From Falsochrobactrum tianjinense (GTDB taxonomy: Bacteria > Pseudomonadota > Alphaproteobacteria > Rhizobiales > Rhizobiaceae): a stretch of 64,000 nucleotides of DNA. The position numbers were made by a program, and so were the translations under genes. Below are positions 54,816 through 64,000 of the stretch, in pieces. The stretch is from positions 186,001 through 250,000 of the forward strand of contig NZ_JAHRVA010000001.1 in assembly GCF_019100495.1 (NCBI RefSeq), written 5' to 3'. The notes beneath the pieces were generated by a model. It saw only the letters and a program-made list of their open reading frames with translations. It did not search any database and was not told the origin of the DNA. The first letter of the stretch is position 1. Every line of letters starts with the position of its first letter.

Positions 54816-55790
54816 TTATGAAAGAGCTATCAGTGACTCAGCTGCGTCGCCATCTATAATTAGGCCATTCACTATGCCGCTTTTCAGTAGTGCTTTGGCG
54901 GCGGCGGCCTTTTCCTGACCGGCAATAAGCAAGACAACCTTTACCTTCTGCAACTCGGCAAATCCCAGGGCTATGGTGCGCTGGTTCAGCTCGTGATTAA
55001 CTTGGCGACCTTCGCTATCGAAGAAAATGCCGTTGGTGTCACCAATTGCGCCTGCTGCCCGAAGGCTTTCCAATTCGGCTTTGCTAAGCATGTTCTGACG
55101 GCGCAGCAATGAATCTTCAGTCAGTTCACCTGCACTAATGAAACAAACCGATACGGACCGGGCTATATCCATTGCCCGTGCAACAGAACGTTGCGAAATC
55201 AAAACTTTTCGGTCTTCGGCAGAATCGGCGATGAATGGAACTGGGAGAAAAAAACCCTGTCCGCCGGTGCGCCGTGCCAACATATGTACAACCTCGAACG
55301 GATTATAGGCAGAGTTTGCAGTCAGGGATCCCATCACCGAGATGAATCTTGCTTGTGGCGCGCGCACACCCGCGAGTTGCAATGTCATCTGCTCGATGGT
55401 TCGGCCCCAACCTGTGCCAATGGTTGCTTCCTGATTATCGGCAAGAAAACTCTTGAGGTAAGTCGCAGCCGCGACACCGACCGCTCTGAACGAAACCTGC
55501 TTGCGAATTTCAGAAGCGGTATCATCGTGCGTATCGAAGCCAAATGACGGCGTAGAAATACAAAAAGACAGCCCATAGTGCCGCATGAGTTCATTTTCGA
55601 CAGGCAGTGTACCAGCATTCTGATGATCGATGGAGATACTGACAAGGCCGCTTTCGCGAGCCTCGCCAAGAATTTTGTTCACGCGCGCGCGTGTTAATCC
55701 AAGTCTTAAAGCTGTCGCTTCCTGGTTGAATCCGCCAACATAATAAAGCCAAGCCACGCGCACCATAAGGCTGTCTTCAGATTCACTCAT
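54816..55790 (-). CDS. SorC/DeoR-type sugar-responsive transcriptional regulator
   Basis: Protein of 324 residues. An N-terminal helix-turn-helix (about 10-55, YYVGGFNQEATALRLGLTRARVNKIL) is followed by a sugar-phosphate-isomerase-like effector domain (GTGWGRTIEQMTLQLAGV; HELNQRTIALGFAELQKV). Architecture and length are those of SorC, LsrR and EryD, which bind phosphorylated sugars and usually repress their own catabolic operons. GAGGGACCG precedes ATG 55790. It is divergent from the ABC-transporter operon, across a perfect palindrome. Confidence 0.9.
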   Translation of the reverse strand: MSESEDSLMVRVAWLYYVGGFNQEATALRLGLTRARVNKILGEARESGLVSISIDHQNAGTLPVENELMRHYGLSFCISTPSFGFDTHDDTASEIRKQVSFRAVGVAAATYLKSFLADNQEATIGTGWGRTIEQMTLQLAGVRAPQARFISVMGSLTANSAYNPFEVVHMLARRTGGQGFFLPVPFIADSAEDRKVLISQRSVARAMDIARSVSVCFISAGELTEDSLLRRQNMLSKAELESLRAAGAIGDTNGIFFDSEGRQVNHELNQRTIALGFAELQKVKVVLLIAGQEKAAAAKALLKSGIVNGLIIDGDAAESLIALS

Positions 55791-55802
55791 CGGTCCCTCA
55801 TT

Positions 55803-55841
55803 CAAATTACAAATGTATTTATAATTGACATTTGTAATTTG
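55803..55841. promoter_or_regulatory. Operator palindrome and promoter of the catabolic operon
   Basis: CAAATTACAAATG (55803-55815) and CATTTGTAATTTG (55829-55841) are perfect 13-bp inverted repeats with a 13-bp spacer. TTGACA (55825-55830) overlaps the right arm; TAATAT at 55850-55855 gives a rather long 19-bp spacing (18 for TTAATA). The site lies 13 bp from the regulator ATG, so binding could control both directions. Confidence 0.75.
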
Positions 55842-56079
55842 TCGACGCTTAATATCAATCATTCCGACGGACAAGAGCGCGAATAGGCGAGCGGGTCAAT
55901 TGGAGCGCCGAACTCTGTGTAACAGTGGGAAGAGGCTGGAACAGAGGAGACGGTTCAGTAGAGGCTGTTCAGGAGGAATAGCGGGCAACGTGGCGCGTCG
56001 AGCTTATGCTGAGGTCGTGACAACTTAACAATTCGAAGCGGGATGGTGGAACCAATCATGTCGCTTCTGGGAGGAATAA

Positions 56080-57033
56080 ATGGAATCTGGAAATTTGAAG
56101 AAGTCTGTCATCGTTGCAGCTTTGACCATACTGATGAGCACAGCCGGTGCATCGGCAACGGACGTCGCCTGGGTGCACTCCAACGCCGCTGCGCAGTCTG
56201 AACAGCGCGCGAAGGCCGGATTTGACGCCTGGCTCAAGGAAACCGCCAAGGATTGGAACATTAGCGTTCTTGATAGCGGCGGCTCAGGCGAACGCACCGC
56301 ATCGAACATTCAGGATGCTGCATCACGTGGCGTAGATGCCATTATTGTCAGCATGTCAGACTTGCGCGCATCGCGTGCAGCTATTGATTCTGCTGTTGCG
56401 GCAAAGATTCCGGTATTTGCAATTGACAGTGGTCAAGTGGATGGTGTGCTCGTTGATGTAACGACCAACAATTGGGCAATGTCAGCTTCCGTGTCCCCGT
56501 ATCTGCTCAATGAGATGGGTGGAAAAGGAAATCTCATTTTCTTGCGCATGGCAGAGCATCACGGCACCCGCAAACGCGGTGACGTCATGGCAACCGTGCT
56601 GAAGGAATATCCTGAAGTGAAGGTATTAGCGGAACACAATATCGACTACACCGCGTTTTTCGAGGACACGACCAGCACCGTGCAGGATTATGCGTCGCGT
56701 TTTGGCGAAGAGATCAATGCCGTTTGGGCCCCGTGGGATGAGCCAGCACAGGCTGCTATCAATGCGCTTAATGCCGCTGGTCTGAAAAATGTGAAAGTCA
56801 TTGGTATCGATGGCCACCCACAGGCAATTGAGGAAGTCTGCAAGCCGGACAGTCTGATGATCGCAACGGTTTCACAGCCGTTTGAAAAGATGGGTGCGCA
56901 GACCGGTGAGTGGATCGAAAGCATCGTCGTGAAGAAGGAAGATGCCGCCACGGTCATTCCTTCCAAAACTGTCTATCTTGATGCACCGCTTGTCACAAAG
57001 CAGAACTGCAAGGACTTTCTCCCGAAGAAGTAG
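56080..57033 (+). CDS. Sugar ABC transporter, periplasmic binding protein (RbsB-like)
   Basis: Protein of 317 residues with a signal peptide ending at about residue 26 (TAGASA). The ribose/galactose-type Peripla_BP_4 fold is seen in SVLDSGGSGERTASNIQDAASRGVDAI, IPVFAIDSGQVDGVLVD and NAVWAPWDEPAQAAINAL. It should capture a sugar, polyol or related compound and deliver it to the ATPase/permease encoded next. GGGAGGAATAA precedes the ATG. A 220-nt leader separates it from the promoter. Confidence 0.9.
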   Translation: MESGNLKKSVIVAALTILMSTAGASATDVAWVHSNAAAQSEQRAKAGFDAWLKETAKDWNISVLDSGGSGERTASNIQDAASRGVDAIIVSMSDLRASRAAIDSAVAAKIPVFAIDSGQVDGVLVDVTTNNWAMSASVSPYLLNEMGGKGNLIFLRMAEHHGTRKRGDVMATVLKEYPEVKVLAEHNIDYTAFFEDTTSTVQDYASRFGEEINAVWAPWDEPAQAAINALNAAGLKNVKVIGIDGHPQAIEEVCKPDSLMIATVSQPFEKMGAQTGEWIESIVVKKEDAATVIPSKTVYLDAPLVTKQNCKDFLPKK

Positions 57034-57054
57034 GGATTTCCATTGTCTGCAACT

Positions 57055-57092
57055 GGCCGGAGCGTGGCCGTTCCGCGTTCCGGCCTTTTTTC
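57055..57092 (+). terminator. Hairpin with T tract after the binding-protein gene
   Basis: GGCCGGA (57055-57061) pairs with TCCGGCC (57079-57085), followed by TTTTTTT. Partial termination here would keep the binding protein in excess over the ATPase and permease. Confidence 0.75.
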
Positions 57093-57125
57093 CAAGACTT
57101 AGCAATTCATCCAGGGAGCTCTTCG

Positions 57126-58640
57126 ATGGCTGTAAGCCTTTCGCAGATCGTAATGTCTTATCCCGGAACGCTGGCGCTGGATCAGGTCTGCGCTGAATTC
57201 CGGTTCGATGAGGTGCACGGACTGATCGGAGAAAATGGCGCGGGAAAGACTACGCTGGTCAGTATTCTCGGCGGCAGCAAAAGCCCGACTTCTGGCAGTA
57301 TCATGATTGATGGTACTGAGGTGAAGCTGAGCAGTGCTGGCAATGCGCTCCGCAAGGGCATTGCGCATGTTTCGCAGGAAGGGAGCCTGGTGCCCGCTCT
57401 GACGGGTGCGCAGAATATTCTGTTGGGCGACGAGCCGCGCATAGGGTTTGGCGTCATCGATAACAGAAAACTACTGGTCCGCGCCAACGAACTATTAACC
57501 CGCTGGTTTCCGCAGGTCTCGATCGATCTCGATCAGCAGGTCGATATGCTGCCTATGGCAGACCAGAAGATTATCGAAATTGTCCGTGCGCTTCGCGGCA
57601 ATGTAAGGCTTCTCATTCTTGACGAGCCGACAGCAACCTTGCCCGCCCGTGAAAAAGAGAGCCTGTGGGAAATTATCAAGACCTTGCCCAAACAGGGCGT
57701 TGGCATTGTATTGATCAGTCATTTTCTTTCCGAGATAAAAGCGCTGAGTGACCGTATCACTGTCCTGCGCGATGGTCATCACATTGCGACACTTCAAGCC
57801 GAGGATTCGAGCGAGGCGAAACTGATTGACCTCATGCTCCAGCGGACTGGAGGCACAGATGCAAGCGAACAGGAAACCCAGCCTGCACGTAATTTTGGCC
57901 CCGTTGTTATGGAAGTAAACGACTGGAAAACAGGCAGTGTCGAGGTCAAACATTTTGCCATTCGTGCGGGCGAGATTGTTGGTCTTATCGGTCTCACTGG
58001 GGCGGGGCATTTCGGTTTTGCGCGCTCGCTTTATGCAGCAAGCGGTGTAACAGGCGGGACGTGCCGGTTTGATGGTGAGGCTCTGGCGAAAGTCAATGCA
58101 CGGACCATGCAGAAAAAAGGTGTGGCGCTGGTGCCGGACCACCGCATGGAAAACGCGCTCGTCGGCGATTGGGACGTGCGCGAAAACCTTGCAATGGTGC
58201 ATCCATCTTACGCAACTTTCGGCGGCACAGGTATACTGTCCATGCGGCGTGAAGCCCGCGAGGCTGACCGCACCATGCAGCTTATGAATGTCAAGGCGCA
58301 TTCGCGCAGCCAGTTTGTGAAGGACCTGAGCGGCGGCAACAAGCAGAAAGTTTCGATTGGTAAGTGGCTTTACGGTGCCGACGATCATTATCGCCTGATG
58401 ATCTTCATTGAGCCCACGGAAGGTGTCGATATTGGTGCCAAGCGTGAAATTCATGCGCAGATGCGCCGCCTGGCAGAGAAGGGCGTCGCCATTCTTGTCA
58501 CCTCCTCCGACCTCATGGAAATCGCCGACGTCGCTGACCGTGTCATCCCCTTTGTGAATGGATATCCCGGAGCTGAAATCGGATGCGATCTCTTTTCCGA
58601 AGCAAAATTTATTGCCGCAATGGCAGGAGTTACCCAATGA
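57126..58640 (+). CDS. Sugar ABC transporter, double-domain ATPase (RbsA-like)
   Basis: Protein of 504 residues with two fused ATPase domains. The first has Walker A GENGAGKTTLVSIL and Walker B LLILDEPTATLP but a weak signature (MADQKIIEIVRAL); the second has the signature LSGGNKQKVSIGKWL and IFIEPTEGVDIGAK in place of a normal Walker B, while its Walker A is degenerate (GLTGAGHFGFA). Such asymmetry is normal for this family. It drives uptake through the permease encoded next, whose ATG overlaps its TGA. Confidence 0.92.
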   Translation: MAVSLSQIVMSYPGTLALDQVCAEFRFDEVHGLIGENGAGKTTLVSILGGSKSPTSGSIMIDGTEVKLSSAGNALRKGIAHVSQEGSLVPALTGAQNILLGDEPRIGFGVIDNRKLLVRANELLTRWFPQVSIDLDQQVDMLPMADQKIIEIVRALRGNVRLLILDEPTATLPAREKESLWEIIKTLPKQGVGIVLISHFLSEIKALSDRITVLRDGHHIATLQAEDSSEAKLIDLMLQRTGGTDASEQETQPARNFGPVVMEVNDWKTGSVEVKHFAIRAGEIVGLIGLTGAGHFGFARSLYAASGVTGGTCRFDGEALAKVNARTMQKKGVALVPDHRMENALVGDWDVRENLAMVHPSYATFGGTGILSMRREAREADRTMQLMNVKAHSRSQFVKDLSGGNKQKVSIGKWLYGADDHYRLMIFIEPTEGVDIGAKREIHAQMRRLAEKGVAILVTSSDLMEIADVADRVIPFVNGYPGAEIGCDLFSEAKFIAAMAGVTQ

Positions 58641-59641
58641 CCCCCCGAATTTCAGCGGACACACCGCAGTCTGCTCGCCACGCGCAGAGTTTCGGTAAAA
58701 AACTCAAAGGCGAATGGCTGCTCAAATACAGTACGCTTTTCGTGCTTTTCCTCTTGTTTGCTGGCTTTTCGCTCACGGTTGACCGTTTTTTGACAGCGAA
58801 TAACCTTCTCAACATTATTCAGCAGATATCGATGCTTACCATTGTTGGAGCAGGACTCACATTTGGCTTTGCCGCTCGCGAAATGGATCTTTCTGTTGGC
58901 TACATGGTGGGGATGGCTGGCATTCTGGTGCCGTTGCTGCTGGTCGCGGGTACGCCGTTGCCACTGGCTCTGCTTGCAGGTCTTGGTGCTGGTTTGGTGG
59001 TGGGGTCTGTTAATGCCGCACTTGTCACGCTCGTTGGCGTGCCGTCGTTGATTGCGACACTTGCGATAGGCTCCATTCTCTATGGCATCAACTTCCTGAT
59101 GACCGGCGGACGCGCGATTTATGGCGGTCTTCCATCAAGCTATCTCTGGCTCGGCCAAGGACGACTCTTCGGCATTCCGGTACTCGCCTTTGCCATGCTT
59201 ATTGTGGTCTTTGTCGCTTGGTTTCTGATGGAACGCACCGTGTTCGGTCGCTATATCTATGCAGTTGGTGGCAATTTGAAAGCAGCAGAACTGTCAGGTG
59301 TAAATGGCCGCTTCTATCGCGCCGCCGCTCTCGTAGTCTGTTCTATTTTTGCAGCTGTTGCAGGGGCTCTACTTGCCGCGCGCCTTGGCTCCGGCCAGCC
59401 GAATGCCGGCGAACGCTATCTTCTTGACGGGCTTGCGACAGTATTCATCGGTATGACGATGTTTCGTCCCGGCACGGCGACGATTGCAGGCACTTTCTTC
59501 GGCGCTCTCTTCATCGGTGTCATCAATAACGGCCTCAACCTCATCGGCATGGACACATACATCCAGAGCATCGTGAAGGGTCTTATCATTCTCGTTGCAG
59601 TCGCGGTCGTTTCGCGCACCACCAAACTGAAGCTCCTGTGA
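58637..59641 (+). CDS. Sugar ABC transporter permease (RbsC-like)
   Basis: Inner-membrane protein of 334 residues with 8-10 hydrophobic segments. FAAREMDLSVGYMVGMAG, GVPSLIATLAIGSILYGI and RYIYAVGGNLKAAELSGVNGR are the conserved BPD_transp_2 features. A single permease gene implies a homodimer, as for ribose. ATG 58637 lies in ATGA with the ATPase stop. Confidence 0.93.
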   Translation: MTPRISADTPQSARHAQSFGKKLKGEWLLKYSTLFVLFLLFAGFSLTVDRFLTANNLLNIIQQISMLTIVGAGLTFGFAAREMDLSVGYMVGMAGILVPLLLVAGTPLPLALLAGLGAGLVVGSVNAALVTLVGVPSLIATLAIGSILYGINFLMTGGRAIYGGLPSSYLWLGQGRLFGIPVLAFAMLIVVFVAWFLMERTVFGRYIYAVGGNLKAAELSGVNGRFYRAAALVVCSIFAAVAGALLAARLGSGQPNAGERYLLDGLATVFIGMTMFRPGTATIAGTFFGALFIGVINNGLNLIGMDTYIQSIVKGLIILVAVAVVSRTTKLKLL

Positions 59642-59713
59642 GAGGGCCCTTGTGCGGGTATTGAACCAAACATCATGAAAAATTTGCAACAGACAGATCT
59701 GTCGGAGGCGCAC

Positions 59714-60742
59714 ATGCAAAATCCGAGTAACTCAAATCTCCTCGAACTATACCGGACGATGCGACGCATCCGTACCTTTGAAGAACGCGTGGGTGAATTG
59801 TTCGTGCGCGGCCAGACGGCAGGTTCGATGCTTCACCTTTCCATCGGTGAAGAAGCCGCAGCTGCTGGTGTTTGTGCGGCCATGCAGCCGCAAGATACCT
59901 TCACGACCCACCATCGCGGTCACGGAATATTCCTGGCACGTGGTGCCGATCCTCGTCAGATGATGGCTGAAATTGGTGGTAAGGAAACCGGCTACTGCCG
60001 TGGCAAGGGCGGCTCCATGCATATCGCCGATATGGCACTTGGCCACCTTGGCGCGAATGCGATTGTCGGTGGAGGGATTCCCTCGGTCGTCGGTGCAGGT
60101 CTTTCCAGTAAGTATCTGAAGAAGAACTCCGTCTCGCTCGCATTCTTCGGCGATGGTGCGATGCAGCAAGGCATTCTGTATGAAAGCATGAATATGGCAG
60201 CGCTTTGGAGCTTGCCGGTAGTTTTCGTCTGCATCAACAATCAATATGGCATGGGAACGCGTGTTGATCAGGCAACCGCCAACACAGCATTCGAACAGCG
60301 TGCCCACGCTTTTGGTCTTAATGGCGCAGTGGTTGACGGTATCGACGTAGAAGAAGTGAAGGCTACGGCCCAAGGGCTGATCGACGATGCCCGCCTTGGC
60401 AAGCCGGGTTTCCTATCTGTTACCTGCTATCGTTTCTTCGGCCATGCGCGCATGGACAAGAGTCCATACCGCGCAGAGGCGGAAGAGACAGAAGGGCGCA
60501 AGAAGGACCCGGTGAAGTTCACCCGTGACCGGCTAATCTCCGCAGGTCTTGCGCAAGAAGCAGCGCTCGACACGATGGACAGCACAATCGTTGCGGAAAT
60601 GGATGCGACAATTGACTTTACCGTCGAATCCAAGGCTCCGCCACTCACCTCCATGTTCAAGGATGTTTATGCCGTGGGCGAACCAGAGCCGGAACCTGTT
60701 CGCACCCGTATCGACCGCGTACTTTCCAAGGATGAAGCATAA
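59714..60742 (+). CDS. TPP-dependent dehydrogenase E1 alpha subunit (PDH/acetoin type)
   Basis: Protein of 342 residues from ATG 59714, which follows GGAGGCGC; ATG 59675 has no ribosome site. The E1 alpha core includes RTFEERVGELF, HRGHGIFLARGADP, GKGGSMHIADMALGHLGANAIVGGG and the TPP motif GDGAMQQGILYESMNMAALW...NN. With E1 beta it decarboxylates or cleaves a 2-oxo acid or acyloin and passes the acyl/hydroxyethyl unit to lipoate. The absence of PDH neighbours and the AcoC-like E2 favour an acetoin-dehydrogenase-type reaction on some intermediate of the imported compound. Confidence 0.88.
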   Translation: MQNPSNSNLLELYRTMRRIRTFEERVGELFVRGQTAGSMLHLSIGEEAAAAGVCAAMQPQDTFTTHHRGHGIFLARGADPRQMMAEIGGKETGYCRGKGGSMHIADMALGHLGANAIVGGGIPSVVGAGLSSKYLKKNSVSLAFFGDGAMQQGILYESMNMAALWSLPVVFVCINNQYGMGTRVDQATANTAFEQRAHAFGLNGAVVDGIDVEEVKATAQGLIDDARLGKPGFLSVTCYRFFGHARMDKSPYRAEAEETEGRKKDPVKFTRDRLISAGLAQEAALDTMDSTIVAEMDATIDFTVESKAPPLTSMFKDVYAVGEPEPEPVRTRIDRVLSKDEA

Positions 60743-61716
60743 TGGTTGCCATGACTTACCGTGACGCGCTGCGTAAAGCGCTGGATGATGCCATGGCTAA
60801 AGACAATACGATTGTCGTCATTGGTGAAGAAGTTGGCCGTTATGGTGGTGCCTACGGTGTTACCAAAGACCTGATCGGCAAATATGGCCCTGAACGGCTC
60901 ATCGATACGCCGATTTCGGAGCCTGCTATCGTTGGTGCTGCTGTTGGTGCTGCAATGACTGGGCTACGGCCAGTTGCTGAGCTCATGTATATCGACTTTC
61001 TTGGTATGACCATGGATCAGCTTGCCAATCAGGCGGCAAAGATCCGCTATATGTTCGGCGGCCAGATCGGCGTGCCGATGGTGCTGCGCACGCAGGGCGG
61101 TACGGGTCGTTCCGCTGGCGCCCAGCATTCGCAAAGCCTTGAGGGCTGGATCATGCATACGCCGGGCCTGCGGCTTGCTATGCCTGCAACCGTGCAGGAT
61201 GCCTATCATATGCTGCGCCAGAGCCTGACTAAGCCGGACCCGGTAGTTTTTATTGAACACAAGGCGCTCTATACTCGCAAGGAAGAAGTCGATCTTGATG
61301 CTGAGCCTCTGGCATGGGGCAAGGCGGCCGTGCGTCGTACAGGTAAAGATCTGGTCATCGTGACTTATTCACGTCAGCTCTTTTACGCGCTTGATGCGGC
61401 TGAAAAGCTTTCAGCCAAGGGCATCGAAGCGACGGTTATTGATCTTCGCACGCTCAATCCGCTTGATTTTGATACTGTGCGCGAACATGTCGAACGCGTC
61501 GGCAAGGTCATGGTCGTTTCCGAAGGTGTCATGACGGCGGGTGTTGCTGCCGAGCTTGCCGCTCGCATTAGCGAAGAATGCTTCGATTATCTGGAACAGC
61601 CGGTTGTGCGCGTTGCGGGTGAAGATATCCCGATCTCTGTTTCGCAGGAGCTTGAAGCTGGCAGCGTACCGACCGCAGAACTTATCCGATCAGTTGCGGA
61701 AAGAATGCTGTCATGA
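60742..61716 (+). CDS. TPP-dependent dehydrogenase E1 beta subunit (PDH/acetoin type)
   Basis: Protein of 324 residues. Features are the N-terminal VVIGEEVGRYGGAYGVTKDL, the central GGQIGVPMVLRTQGG and the conserved AQHSQSLEGWIMHTPGL, plus the C-terminal VVSEGVMTAGVAAELA of E1 beta/transketolase C-domain. It completes the alpha2-beta2 E1 with the preceding gene, whose TAA overlaps its ATG. It ends inside the start of the E2 gene. Confidence 0.9.
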   Translation: MVAMTYRDALRKALDDAMAKDNTIVVIGEEVGRYGGAYGVTKDLIGKYGPERLIDTPISEPAIVGAAVGAAMTGLRPVAELMYIDFLGMTMDQLANQAAKIRYMFGGQIGVPMVLRTQGGTGRSAGAQHSQSLEGWIMHTPGLRLAMPATVQDAYHMLRQSLTKPDPVVFIEHKALYTRKEEVDLDAEPLAWGKAAVRRTGKDLVIVTYSRQLFYALDAAEKLSAKGIEATVIDLRTLNPLDFDTVREHVERVGKVMVVSEGVMTAGVAAELAARISEECFDYLEQPVVRVAGEDIPISVSQELEAGSVPTAELIRSVAERMLS

Positions 61717-63329
61717 CGGAACGTATTCTCAAAATGCCACGTCTTGGCGAAACGATGGAAGAAGGCAAGATTGTTGGCTTCCTCGTCAAGCCGGGCGACA
61801 GTTTCAAGCGTGGGGATTCAATCATCGAGATTGAAACCGACAAGACGGTTGCTGAATTCCCGGCGCTTGGCGACGGCACGCTCAATGAATGGATCGGGAC
61901 TATAGGGGATCACGTCGTCGTTGGCGCGCCGCTGGCACGCATCGATATTGGCGATGGTCCTGACTGGACGGATGAGGGCAGCGAAAGCGCGCCTTTTCCA
62001 GAGGAGCCGGCTGCGTTGCACCCCGCACGCTCAGCCGGCTCCCACAACGAACTTGTCGTAACCGATCTTGATATGCCGCGTCTTGGTGAGACAATGGATG
62101 AGGGGCGTATCGTTCGCTGGCTAAAAGCTGCGGGCGATCATTTTGAACGCGGCGAAGCCATTCTTGAAATTGAAACCGACAAGACAGTCGCGGAGTTTCC
62201 CGCTCTCGTTAGTGGCAAGCTGGTCGACATCCTGCGCCTTGAAGGCGACATGGTAACTGTTGGCGATGCAATTGCCCGTATTGAGGTGGCGGCGGGTGCG
62301 GTCACGCCAAAAAATGATGCAAGCTCGCAGTCTGAAGCTCCGGCAATAAGCGCAAATCAGGCTCCTGTGGTACAGCCTGCAAGGGTAATCGGTAATGATC
62401 AGCGCATTCGTGCCACGCCTCTTGCGCGCAGGCTTGCGCGTCAGAAAGGGCTCGATATCGGTACACTTTCAGGCTCTGGCCGCAGAGGTCGAGTCGAGAA
62501 AGAGGATGTGCTGGCAGCCGCAAGCGGAGCGCAGACTGACGCTGACGTAAACTTTGTTGCGCTCGCGGCTGGCCAGGTGGCCTATACGGATATTGGTCCT
62601 AAGAATGCCCGGACATTTCTGCTGCTTCACGGCTTTTCGGGTGATCGAACGACATGGAGCGGCATAGCTTCCGGTCTGCGCCGTGCGGGTTTTCGCGCCG
62701 TTGCCCTCGATCTTCCAGCCCATGGCCTGACGACTATTGAAGCGTCGAACGCGGAAGAACTTGGCGACTTCCTCCGCGATTTCCTCGATGCGCTCTCTAT
62801 TCGTAAGGTGGATATCGTCGCTCATTCACTCGGAGCGGTAGCTGCGGCCACTTTTGCCTCGGCTCATCCAGCAGACGTTTCCAGTTTGATACTTGTTGCA
62901 CCTGCAGGCCTTGGCTCGGAGATCGATGCCGGCTTTGTATCGGGTATGGCGGCGGCAACGAGTGCGGGCGAGGTAACGCATCTACTGCGTCGCGTTGCGG
63001 CGAAGCCGGTCGAGGTATCGTCTGTTCTGGCGGGAGAATTTGCCGCGACCATGGCGAAGGGGCGCCTCAAGGCATTGGCAGCGGCCATTATTGGGTCGTC
63101 CGGTCAGCGTGCCGATATTGTCGGGCCGCTTGACAGACTTTCGCGTTCAATGCCTGTTCGTGTCCTCTTCGGCCTTCAGGACCGTATTATACCGTGGCAA
63201 CAGGTAACGGCATTGTCGCCATTTGTTGGTGTCCATTTCCTCGCTCAATCCGGACATATGCCGCAATGGGACCAGACGAAGGATGTTCTCGATCTAATTT
63301 TAAATGTTGCGGGGGAAGCCAGTGACTGA
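61713..63329 (+). CDS. E2-like protein: two lipoyl domains, E1/E3-binding domain and alpha/beta hydrolase (AcoC type)
   Basis: Protein of 538 residues. Two lipoyl domains (about 1-78 and 118-195) each show the lipoyl-lysine motif ETDKT; a peripheral subunit-binding domain follows (about 230-268, RATPLARRLARQKGLDI) and then an alpha/beta hydrolase (about 288-535) with LLLHGFSGDRTTW, nucleophile AHSLGA, Asp in LQDRIIPW and His in SGHMPQWD. There is no chloramphenicol-acetyltransferase-type E2 core and no HxxxDG. This is the design of AcoC in acetoin dehydrogenase complexes, here with a doubled lipoyl domain. Confidence 0.88.
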   Translation: MTERILKMPRLGETMEEGKIVGFLVKPGDSFKRGDSIIEIETDKTVAEFPALGDGTLNEWIGTIGDHVVVGAPLARIDIGDGPDWTDEGSESAPFPEEPAALHPARSAGSHNELVVTDLDMPRLGETMDEGRIVRWLKAAGDHFERGEAILEIETDKTVAEFPALVSGKLVDILRLEGDMVTVGDAIARIEVAAGAVTPKNDASSQSEAPAISANQAPVVQPARVIGNDQRIRATPLARRLARQKGLDIGTLSGSGRRGRVEKEDVLAAASGAQTDADVNFVALAAGQVAYTDIGPKNARTFLLLHGFSGDRTTWSGIASGLRRAGFRAVALDLPAHGLTTIEASNAEELGDFLRDFLDALSIRKVDIVAHSLGAVAAATFASAHPADVSSLILVAPAGLGSEIDAGFVSGMAAATSAGEVTHLLRRVAAKPVEVSSVLAGEFAATMAKGRLKALAAAIIGSSGQRADIVGPLDRLSRSMPVRVLFGLQDRIIPWQQVTALSPFVGVHFLAQSGHMPQWDQTKDVLDLILNVAGEASD

Positions 63330-63657
63330 TGTGAAGGCACAGTTCAAGGAAGCACAATTGCGATTGGGCGCTTTCGCCAAAGCCACGCCGGAGCTGATGG
63401 CGGGCTTTGCCAAGGTCAGCAAAACGGCAACGGCTGCGGGGGCGTTTTCGTCTTCGCAACGGGAATTGATTGCCGTCAGTATCGCTGTCACAAAGGGCTG
63501 CGAGGATTGCATCCTCTATCACATTGACGCAGCCATCCGTCACGGTGCAACCGAGTCGGAACTGGTTGAGGCTCTGGAAGTCGCGGTCGAAATGGGCGGC
63601 GGTCCGGCTGTCATGTATGCGGGCAAAGCGCTGGAAGCTTTTCGCGGATTAAGTTGA
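63322..63657 (+). CDS. AhpD/carboxymuconolactone decarboxylase-family protein
   Basis: Protein of 111 residues from a GTG at 63322 that overlaps the E2 stop by 8 bp; GGGGGAAG precedes it. The AhpD-type redox motif CEDCILYHIDAAI (Cys-x2-Cys-x3-His) is intact. AhpD in other bacteria reduces peroxiredoxin using lipoylated dehydrogenase E2, so its place directly after a lipoyl-E2 gene suggests it may use this complex as electron donor. This is inference. Confidence 0.85.
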   Translation: MTDVKAQFKEAQLRLGAFAKATPELMAGFAKVSKTATAAGAFSSSQRELIAVSIAVTKGCEDCILYHIDAAIRHGATESELVEALEVAVEMGGGPAVMYAGKALEAFRGLS

Positions 63658-63674
63658 AATATTGCACGATAAAG

Positions 63675-63705
63675 CGTTCCGAAAACTGGGGGTGTTTTCG
63701 GAACG
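63675..63705. repeat. Perfect 12-bp inverted repeat between the AhpD-like and kinase genes
   Basis: CGTTCCGAAAAC (63675-63686) pairs with GTTTTCGGAACG (63694-63705) around TGGGGGT. No T tract follows. It could be an mRNA stabiliser, a partial terminator, or a decayed copy of the interspersed palindrome (shared CCGAAAA/TTTTCGG). Confidence 0.8.
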
Positions 63706-63723
63706 ATATTCGGGAGGATTTGA

Positions 63724-64000
63724 ATGGCTTATTTTCTGACCGCCGATGGAGGAACGGAAAGCATCCGCGCGCGAGTTTATGATCTTTCTGGCATGTGCTT
63801 GGCGAGTGCCGCCGTGCCTTATGAAACGAAGTTTTCAAGTGGGGCACGCGCGGAGCAGAATCCCGAAGACTGGTGGTCTTCCTTCGTTCAGGCCGCACGC
63901 AAAGCGATTGCAGAATCCTTAATCGACCCGGCAGCAATCGAAGCTGTTACGCTGGCCACAACGAGTTGCACAGTCGTTGCTCTGGACGTTGATGGCAGGC
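63724..64000 (+). CDS. FGGY family carbohydrate kinase, N-terminal part
   Basis: The first 92 residues of a kinase that continues beyond the window. LTADGGTESIRARVYDL is the phosphate-1 loop of FGGY kinases and EQNPEDWWSSFVQAARKAI the usual following segment. The serine-isoleucine-arginine in the loop is closer to LsrK-type and related kinases than to xylulokinase, but this is too short to name a substrate. GGGAGGATTTGA precedes ATG 63724. It probably phosphorylates the imported compound. Confidence 0.88.
   Translation, partial: MAYFLTADGGTESIRARVYDLSGMCLASAAVPYETKFSSGARAEQNPEDWWSSFVQAARKAIAESLIDPAAIEAVTLATTSCTVVALDVDGR

What the first reader, a model, noticed from the sequence alone, without database searches (positions are those of the whole stretch)
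54816..64000. Unassigned sugar-type catabolic locus built around an acetoin-dehydrogenase-like complex
Seen: a SorC-type regulator, RbsBAC-type importer, E1 alpha/beta, AcoC-type E2, AhpD-like protein and FGGY kinase are packed head to tail with overlaps. Known: LsrR, EryD and SorC respond to phosphorylated sugars made by an FGGY or similar kinase; acetoin-type complexes cleave acyloins or diketones to acyl-CoA. Inference: the substrate is imported, phosphorylated and split oxidatively to an acyl-CoA, perhaps from a branched or deoxy sugar, or a diketone-forming compound as in AI-2 breakdown but with a TPP enzyme instead of a thiolase. I know of no described pathway with exactly this gene set.
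Basis: partly seen in the sequence, partly recalled or inferred. Interest (0 to 1): 0.75.

Follow-up and report, generated by a model that had tools for sequence, protein, structure and literature searches.

The report
Sugar operon with acetoin-type splitting enzyme
A conserved set of bacterial genes appears to import a small sugar or sugar alcohol, tag it with phosphate and split it with an enzyme complex of the kind that breaks down acetoin, which would be a new sugar-degradation route, although its substrate is still unknown.

Summary
The gene set is real and looks like one operon: divergent SorC/LsrR-like regulator, RbsBAC-type importer, E1 alpha and beta, AcoC-type E2 (two lipoyl domains, E3-binding domain, alpha/beta hydrolase), AhpD-like CxxC protein and an FGGY kinase that ends 1.2 kb past the window. 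The block recurs in other, mostly alphaproteobacterial, genomes: in 43 loci tabulated, the kinase lies near this E1 in 39. These E1-alpha proteins form one clade (100/99) with clade-specific basic residues in segments that I recall as lining the PDH active site. A palindrome, ACAAATGT-N11-ACATTTGT, precedes SorC in 35 of 35 SorC-bearing loci scanned (23 with at most 2 mismatches); two later loci lack it. Twenty-four of 43 loci carry one or two SDR dehydrogenases and six others a ketose 3-epimerase. In this genome the SDR end is decayed. My reading: a ketose phosphate is cleaved oxidatively to acyl-CoA plus an aldose phosphate, most likely a 1-deoxyketose (1-deoxy-D-xylulose 5-phosphate type) giving acetyl-CoA and glyceraldehyde 3-phosphate. 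The substrate and every catalytic step are inferred. Nine searches of an open-access library showed no description.

The parts
54816..55790 (-). SorC/LsrR/DeoR-type regulator gene, divergent
   Evidence: Pfam Sugar-bind 177.5 bits; NCBIfam DeoR 166.8 and LsrR 102.6 bits, both under their cut-offs; PDB LsrR 4go1 E=1.5e-26
55809..55835 (.). palindrome ACAAATGT-N11-ACATTTGT, proposed SorC operator
56080..57033 (+). periplasmic binding protein, RbsB-like
   Evidence: Pfam Peripla_BP_4 110.2 bits; RbsB 76.1 bits, under cut-off; nearest folds are pentose/polyol binders
57126..58640 (+). sugar ABC transporter ATPase, CUT2 type
   Evidence: two ABC_tran stretches; AraG 376.6 bits, under cut-off
58637..59641 (+). 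sugar ABC transporter permease
   Evidence: BPD_transp_2 133.7 bits; start chosen by me
59714..60742 (+). TPP-dependent E1 alpha subunit
   Evidence: E1_dh 231.5 bits; own clade; start chosen by me
60742..61716 (+). E1 beta subunit
   Evidence: Transket_pyr and Transketolase_C; NF006667 over cut-off
61713..63329 (+). AcoC-type E2: two lipoyl domains, E3-binding domain, alpha/beta hydrolase
   Evidence: NF011457 419.4 bits, cut-off 307
63304..63657 (+). AhpD-like carboxymuconolactone decarboxylase family protein with CxxC
   Evidence: CMD 71.8 bits; AhpD core domain over cut-off
63724..64000 (+). start of the FGGY pentulose-type kinase gene; it continues to the equivalent of 65217 in the genome
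   Evidence: XylB 288.3 bits against cut-off 380.25

Best explanation
A substrate-induced catabolic operon. An RbsBAC-type transporter imports a pentose-sized polyol or ketose. In relatives, one or two SDR dehydrogenases, or in others a ketose 3-epimerase, would turn it into a particular 2-ketose. The FGGY kinase phosphorylates it, and the ketose phosphate is probably also the SorC inducer. The E1 alpha/beta TPP enzyme attacks the keto carbon, breaks the C2-C3 bond, releases an aldose phosphate and passes the acyl group to the E2 lipoyl arm. The alpha/beta-hydrolase-type domain of E2 hands it to CoA, and a housekeeping E3 reoxidises the lipoyl group. The most likely substrate class is a 1-deoxyketose phosphate, such as 1-deoxy-D-xylulose 5-phosphate, giving acetyl-CoA and glyceraldehyde 3-phosphate: the oxidative reverse of DXP synthase. 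Shown by sequence: gene content, conservation, kinase/E1 linkage, distinct E1 clade, palindrome. Inferred: every catalytic step and the substrate. The confidence given is for the general scheme; for the 1-deoxyketose form it is about 0.35.
For: Same gene order in seven annotated records. FGGY near this E1 in 39 of 43 loci, SorC in 39. In plasmid records the nine with a kinase at least 60% identical are the same nine that rank first for the E2. E1-alpha rows of these loci: one clade, 39 of 39, support 100/99, stem 0.88, against 72 others. Clade-specific H67, R247 and K250, each 39 of 39 inside, and 0, 5 and 0 of 72 outside, fall by alignment beside PDH active-site segments (residue roles recalled). 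Palindrome before SorC in 35 of 35 loci with SorC. Kinase nearest in fold to pentulose kinases, binding protein to pentose/polyol binders. SDR1 nearest galactitol dehydrogenase, SDR2 nearest a putative acetoin(diacetyl) reductase; the epimerase matches solved D-tagatose 3-epimerases. Chemistry: PMC3424233 (passages) says purified PDH forms 1-deoxy-D-xylulose from pyruvate and D-glyceraldehyde and that XylB phosphorylates it.
Against: No substrate or activity is known. L053 and L065 have the E1 without a kinase nearby, and kinases at 54-55% identity occur without this E1 in three genomes of the class sample. Neighbours in some lineages (DhaK-like, FucU-like, fuculose-aldolase-like genes) are not explained by a 1-deoxypentulose route. 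Outside the clade, position 250 is Arg in 14 of 72 rows and position 247 Lys in 10 or Arg in 5, so basic residues there are not unique. SDR family matches are generic. In the window genome the SDR end is lost.
Confidence: 0.55

Rival explanations
1. The same scheme, but the ketose phosphate is an ordinary or branched one (xylulose, ribulose or apulose type), so that the products are glycolyl-CoA and a triose phosphate.
For: Kinase and binding protein look pentose-like; the 3-epimerase family acts on ketopentoses and ketohexoses (related enzyme in PMC8167858, passages); DhaK-like genes stand near some loci.
Against: Common pentulose phosphates enter the pentose phosphate pathway without a dedicated complex; the E2 is acetoin-type by curated model.
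Confidence: 0.2
2. An acetoin or 2,3-butanediol operon; the sugar importer and kinase serve something else.
For: E2 passes the curated acetoin E2 cut-off; SDR2 resembles acetoin(diacetyl) reductases.
Against: The kinase stays next to this E1 across families (39 of 43 loci); the importer is sugar-type; the E1 clade is set apart by a long stem, though no proven AcoA was in that tree.
Confidence: 0.09
3. An AI-2 (DPD) or other 2,3-diketone route, with the TPP complex in place of the LsrG/LsrF steps.
For: The layout parallels lsr: LsrR-like regulator, CUT2 importer, FGGY kinase, acetyl-CoA and DHAP as lsr products (PMC8016206, passages).
Against: Binding protein is RbsB-like; the LsrB-like one of the f40 loci differs from LsrB at most positions I recall as AI-2 contacts; the kinase scores higher as XylB (288.3 bits) than as LsrK (176.3).
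Confidence: 0.08
4. A 2-oxoacid dehydrogenase complex of ordinary kind, acting on an oxoacid made from a sugar acid.
For: E1 is homologous to PDH E1 and E1b passes a PDH E1 beta subfamily cut-off.
Against: No dehydratase or oxoacid-forming enzyme recurs in the neighbourhoods that I read (partly by eye); E2 lacks the usual acyltransferase domain.
Confidence: 0.06

Closest known systems
Acetoin dehydrogenase complex (AcoA/AcoB/AcoC)
   Same: E1 alpha/beta plus an E2 with lipoyl and alpha/beta-hydrolase domains; E2 passes the curated model
   Different: Sits in a sugar import/kinase operon; E1 forms its own clade; no E3 in the locus; acetoin cleavage untested
lsr (AI-2) operon of enteric bacteria
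   Same: LsrR-like regulator, CUT2 importer, FGGY kinase, cleavage expected to give an acyl-CoA and a triose phosphate (lsr chemistry from PMC8016206, passages)
   Different: No LsrF or LsrG homologue noticed among the translations; RbsB-like binding protein; TPP/lipoyl complex instead of a thiolase
D-apiose/apulose routes of the Gerlt group (recalled, not read; one search found no paper)
   Same: CUT2 importer, ketose kinase and a split TPP enzyme acting on a ketose phosphate
   Different: That enzyme is a transketolase without a lipoyl E2 (recalled)
XylB (xylulokinase)
   Same: Best NCBIfam model for the kinase, 288.3 bits
   Different: Under the 380.25-bit cut-off; own operon context

Membership tests
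Acetoin dehydrogenase complex | E2 over the curated cut-off of NF011457 (lipoyl plus alpha/beta hydrolase) | tested here: met
   419.4 bits against 307; candidate Ser/Asp/His triad in 37 of 37 loci
Acetoin dehydrogenase complex | E1 alpha groups with proven AcoA | tested here: inconclusive
   own clade, 100/99, but the outgroup held no proven AcoA
Acetoin dehydrogenase complex | cleaves acetoin to acetyl-CoA and acetaldehyde | not testable with these tools
   needs an enzyme assay
Pyruvate dehydrogenase complex | E1 alpha over the curated PDH E1 alpha cut-off | tested here: not met
   330.7 against 393.85 and 205.7 against 411.35 bits
Pyruvate dehydrogenase complex | E1 beta over a curated PDH E1 beta cut-off | tested here: met
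   NF006667 (subfamily) 353.6 against 321; PRK11892 332.4 against 454 not met
Pyruvate dehydrogenase complex | E2 with a 2-oxoacid acyltransferase catalytic domain | tested here: not met
   Pfam shows an alpha/beta hydrolase instead
lsr (AI-2) system | LsrB-type binding protein | tested here: not met
   RbsB-like; no LsrB match listed
lsr (AI-2) system | kinase over the AI-2 kinase cut-off | tested here: not met
   176.3 against 528 bits
SorC family regulator | Sugar-bind effector domain | tested here: met
   PF04198 177.5 bits against 27
SorC family regulator | binds a palindromic operator and a phosphosugar | not testable with these tools
   a conserved palindrome is present; binding needs an experiment
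Xylulokinase (XylB) | score over the curated cut-off | tested here: not met
   288.3 against 380.25 bits

The most novel reading that the evidence does not exclude
A retro-DXP-synthase catabolic pathway: bacteria import 1-deoxy-D-xylulose or related 1-deoxy polyols or ketoses, phosphorylate them and cleave the 1-deoxyketose phosphate oxidatively to acetyl-CoA and glyceraldehyde 3-phosphate with a dedicated acetoin-type TPP/lipoyl complex.
Probability: 0.3. Interest if true: 0.8.

Novelty: new variant of a known kind. Interest (0 to 1): 0.6.

Why it matters
If right, a TPP/lipoyl dehydrogenase complex acts directly on a sugar phosphate; I know of no described pathway that does so. It would reveal a food source (deoxy or branched sugars or polyols) for soil, plant-associated and marine bacteria, give these 43 loci a function, and offer a ketose-phosphate-cleaving complex as a tool. 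The prediction can be tested with a few purified proteins.

Tried and rejected
Considered and lowered: chance clustering (same order in seven annotated records); AI-2; a plain acetoin operon; an ordinary 2-oxoacid complex (see rivals). The AhpD-like protein was considered as a lipoyl-linked redox partner (as I recall for M. tuberculosis AhpD); it is found in only 21 of 43 loci, so I treat it as accessory. The 89-aa frame behind the SDR1 fragment looked to me like a transposase remnant, but Pfam found nothing in it. The structure search of the binding protein (model mean pLDDT 87.8) named the ligand class at best, not a ligand. The kinase model was made for the Brucella tritici copy (L054), with mean pLDDT 77.8. 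Nine literature searches showed no description of the gene set in their listings; two returned no paper.

Counting notes. L041 and L057 are the same contig; L034, L035 and L054 have identical E1-alpha rows. L040, a genome with fragmented genes, was left out of the 43-locus table; L040 and L048 were left out and the tree; L022, L166 and L167 were not in the tree. The SDR1 count of 22 includes five entries of 36-38% identity; in L033 that match is the SDR2 gene itself, so I count SDR1 in 17. In one search my gene picker missed the SDR genes of L036; searches show them. The label 'hydrolase-type E2' was found with queries that include the clade's own E2, which favours the clade.
Full report
WHAT IS THERE. 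The window equals G000:C1:186001-250000 of a 3.5-Mb, 20-contig genome. The closest named genomes to its E1-alpha are Brucella tritici and Ochrobactrum sp. Q0168, at 96 and 95% identity, so it belongs to Brucella in the broad sense. The locus reads: SorC-type regulator (minus strand), then on the plus strand binding protein, ABC ATPase, permease, E1 alpha, E1 beta, E2, AhpD-like protein and FGGY kinase. The E2 has two lipoyl domains, an E3-binding domain and an alpha/beta-hydrolase domain, and passes the curated acetoin E2 cut-off. Three lipoamide dehydrogenases over the cut-off lie elsewhere in the genome. Among the NCBIfam models shown, none for the regulator, importer or kinase is passed (for the ATPase the best 25 of 186 were shown), so curated models do not name the substrate.

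WHAT THE RELATIVES SHOW. tblastn of the E2 against plasmid records found 28 records; the nine best are exactly the nine whose kinase is at least 60% identical in a separate search. Seven of the nine were opened: all have the order SorC / binding protein, ATPase, permease, E1a, E1b, E2, AhpD-like, FGGY. Five carry two SDR genes behind the kinase, Nitratireductor one, and the Rhizobium hidalgonense record ends inside the kinase gene. In S. meliloti Ak57 the E2 gene is annotated in two pieces. In a sample of the window's relatives, 8 of 12 genomes of the genus, the window's included, hold this E1 at 94% identity or more. Farther out it is rare: 15 of 397 in the order sample at E 1e-85, 2 of 385 in the class sample and 3 of 398 in the phylum sample at E 1e-110, the window genome counted each time. 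One plasmid record is labelled Roseateles, a betaproteobacterium, but marked UNVERIFIED and 83-99% identical to Shinella.

LINKAGE. In the final table of 43 loci (42 distinct contigs), SorC is near E1 in 39, FGGY in 39, SDR2 in 24, SDR1 as its own gene in 17, the 3-epimerase in 6 and the AhpD-like gene in 21. The four loci without FGGY are a 4-kb piece (L022), one whose contig ends in the E2 (L063), and L053 and L065. SDR2 and the epimerase never occur together; 13 loci, the window's included, have neither. SDR1 is closest in the PDB to galactitol dehydrogenase and SDR2 to a putative acetoin(diacetyl) reductase, among hundreds of other SDR matches. The epimerase (L045-L048, L022 and SAR116 L061) matches solved D-tagatose 3-epimerases at E=4e-143; a related enzyme is reported to act on L-ribulose, D-ribulose and D-allulose (PMC8167858, passages). 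Other neighbours in single lineages are DhaK-like, FucU-like and fuculose-phosphate-aldolase-like genes. Against a tight bond: L053 and L065 lack the kinase, and kinases at 54-55% identity occur without this E1 in three genomes of the class sample.

OPERATOR. A palindrome at 55809-55835 has matches upstream of SorC in all 35 loci with SorC among 38 scanned: 15 with no mismatch, 4 with one, 4 with two, 5 with three, 7 with four. One shuffle of all 795 kb gave no site at up to two mismatches, 1 at three and 8 at four. Several of these loci are close relatives, so they are not independent. Of loci added later, L159 has two mismatches, L063 four, and L166 and L167 six, that is, no site. The window genome has one place within two mismatches; the control, the pattern read backwards, also had one. 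SorC effector domains bind phosphosugars, and for CggR and DeoR these are intermediates of the controlled pathway (PMC11229326, passages).

THE COMPLEX. E1-alpha rows of these loci form one side of a branch, 39 of 39, support 100/99, stem 0.88 changes per column, against 72 other E1-alpha rows; 38 of 39 have a hydrolase-type E2 nearby, against 5 of 72 outside. The outgroup is the remainder of one scan plus four chosen loci, and holds no proven AcoA. Residues invariant inside and rare outside include H67 (0 of 72 outside), R247 (5 of 72), K250 (0 of 72), F64 and F74 (both 0 of 72). Outside, position 250 is Arg in 14 of 72 and position 247 Lys in 10, so the charge is not unique. By alignment to human PDH E1 alpha, H67 stands just before the position I recall as Tyr89, and R247 and K250 lie in the loop after the residue I recall as His263. 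Extra positive charge there would suit a phosphorylated substrate; this is inference. A candidate Ser/Asp/His triad in the E2 hydrolase domain is conserved in 37 of 37 loci counted.

HOW IT MOST LIKELY WORKS. Import; oxidation or epimerisation to a 2-ketose; phosphorylation by the pentulose-type kinase; TPP cleavage between C2 and C3; acyl transfer through lipoyl to CoA; reoxidation by a shared E3. For a 1-deoxypentulose 5-phosphate the products would be acetyl-CoA and glyceraldehyde 3-phosphate. PMC3424233 (passages) states that purified PDH forms 1-deoxy-D-xylulose from pyruvate and D-glyceraldehyde, and that XylB phosphorylates it; the same paper finds that wild-type PDH does not make enough to replace DXP synthase in vivo. 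I give about 0.55 to the scheme and about 0.35 to the 1-deoxyketose form. The chief rival is a hydroxymethyl ketose giving glycolyl-CoA. The lsr pathway is the closest working parallel: kinase, then acetyl-CoA plus DHAP from a five-carbon 1-deoxy compound (PMC8016206, passages; the comparison is mine).

STATE OF THE LOCUS HERE. Behind the kinase only an SDR1 fragment remains: 81-84 bases spanning the kinase end and SDR1 start (79-83% identity) and 114-118 bases of its interior (about 74-75%), with the stretch between missing; 5 of 9 same-genus loci gave these matches. SDR2 is absent; its best relative in the genome is 43% identical. In eight same-genus loci (L034-L039, L054, L055) both SDRs align over nearly their whole length without internal stops; the ninth, L040, has them in pieces. 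None of five flanking proteins of the window locus matches those nine loci, so the position seems to vary within the genus. In this strain the pathway may accept only the ketose itself, or be decaying.

PRIOR ART. Nine searches of the open-access library gave listings with no paper that describes this gene set; five papers were read in passages only. Most subscription journals are outside that library. I recall, without a call, the apiose work of the Gerlt group as nearest in spirit.

Noticed in passing
L144:3527-9720 (G000:C1 about 269.5-275.7 kb, 18 kb and more past the kinase): A second AcoC-type E1/E2 set in the same genome (E2 320.6 bits, over the cut-off), beside an SDR and other oxidoreductase-like genes; not typical of an acetoin operon.
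   Followed up: partly
L092, L093, L100, L114: Another CUT2 importer + SDR + E1 + acyltransferase-type E2 arrangement, in a separate E1 clade.
   Followed up: no
L163:1369-36001 (Shinella sp. H4-D48 plasmid p1): Sugar locus with E1, AcoC-type E2, lpdA, lipA, transaldolase, gph, triose-phosphate isomerases, FGGY kinases and a CUT2 importer: perhaps another sugar use of such a complex.
   Followed up: no
L061:6778-11812 (SAR116 contig): A FucU-like gene follows the kinase; next door on the other strand lie MtnK, MtnA and an aldolase/SDR fusion, a methylthioribose/5-deoxyribose salvage set.
   Followed up: partly
L044:6139-7023 (oriented as) and L166:6156-7025: A 3-hydroxyisobutyrate-dehydrogenase-like gene next to SorC in two lineages, recognised by eye only.
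   Followed up: no
L031:14028-15346 (S. meliloti Ak57): The E2 gene is annotated as two pieces, so that copy looks interrupted.
   Followed up: no
L028 (NZ_CP084754.1): Record labelled Roseateles sp. XES5 carries a cluster 83-99% identical to Shinella; marked UNVERIFIED_ORG, possibly mislabelled.
   Followed up: no
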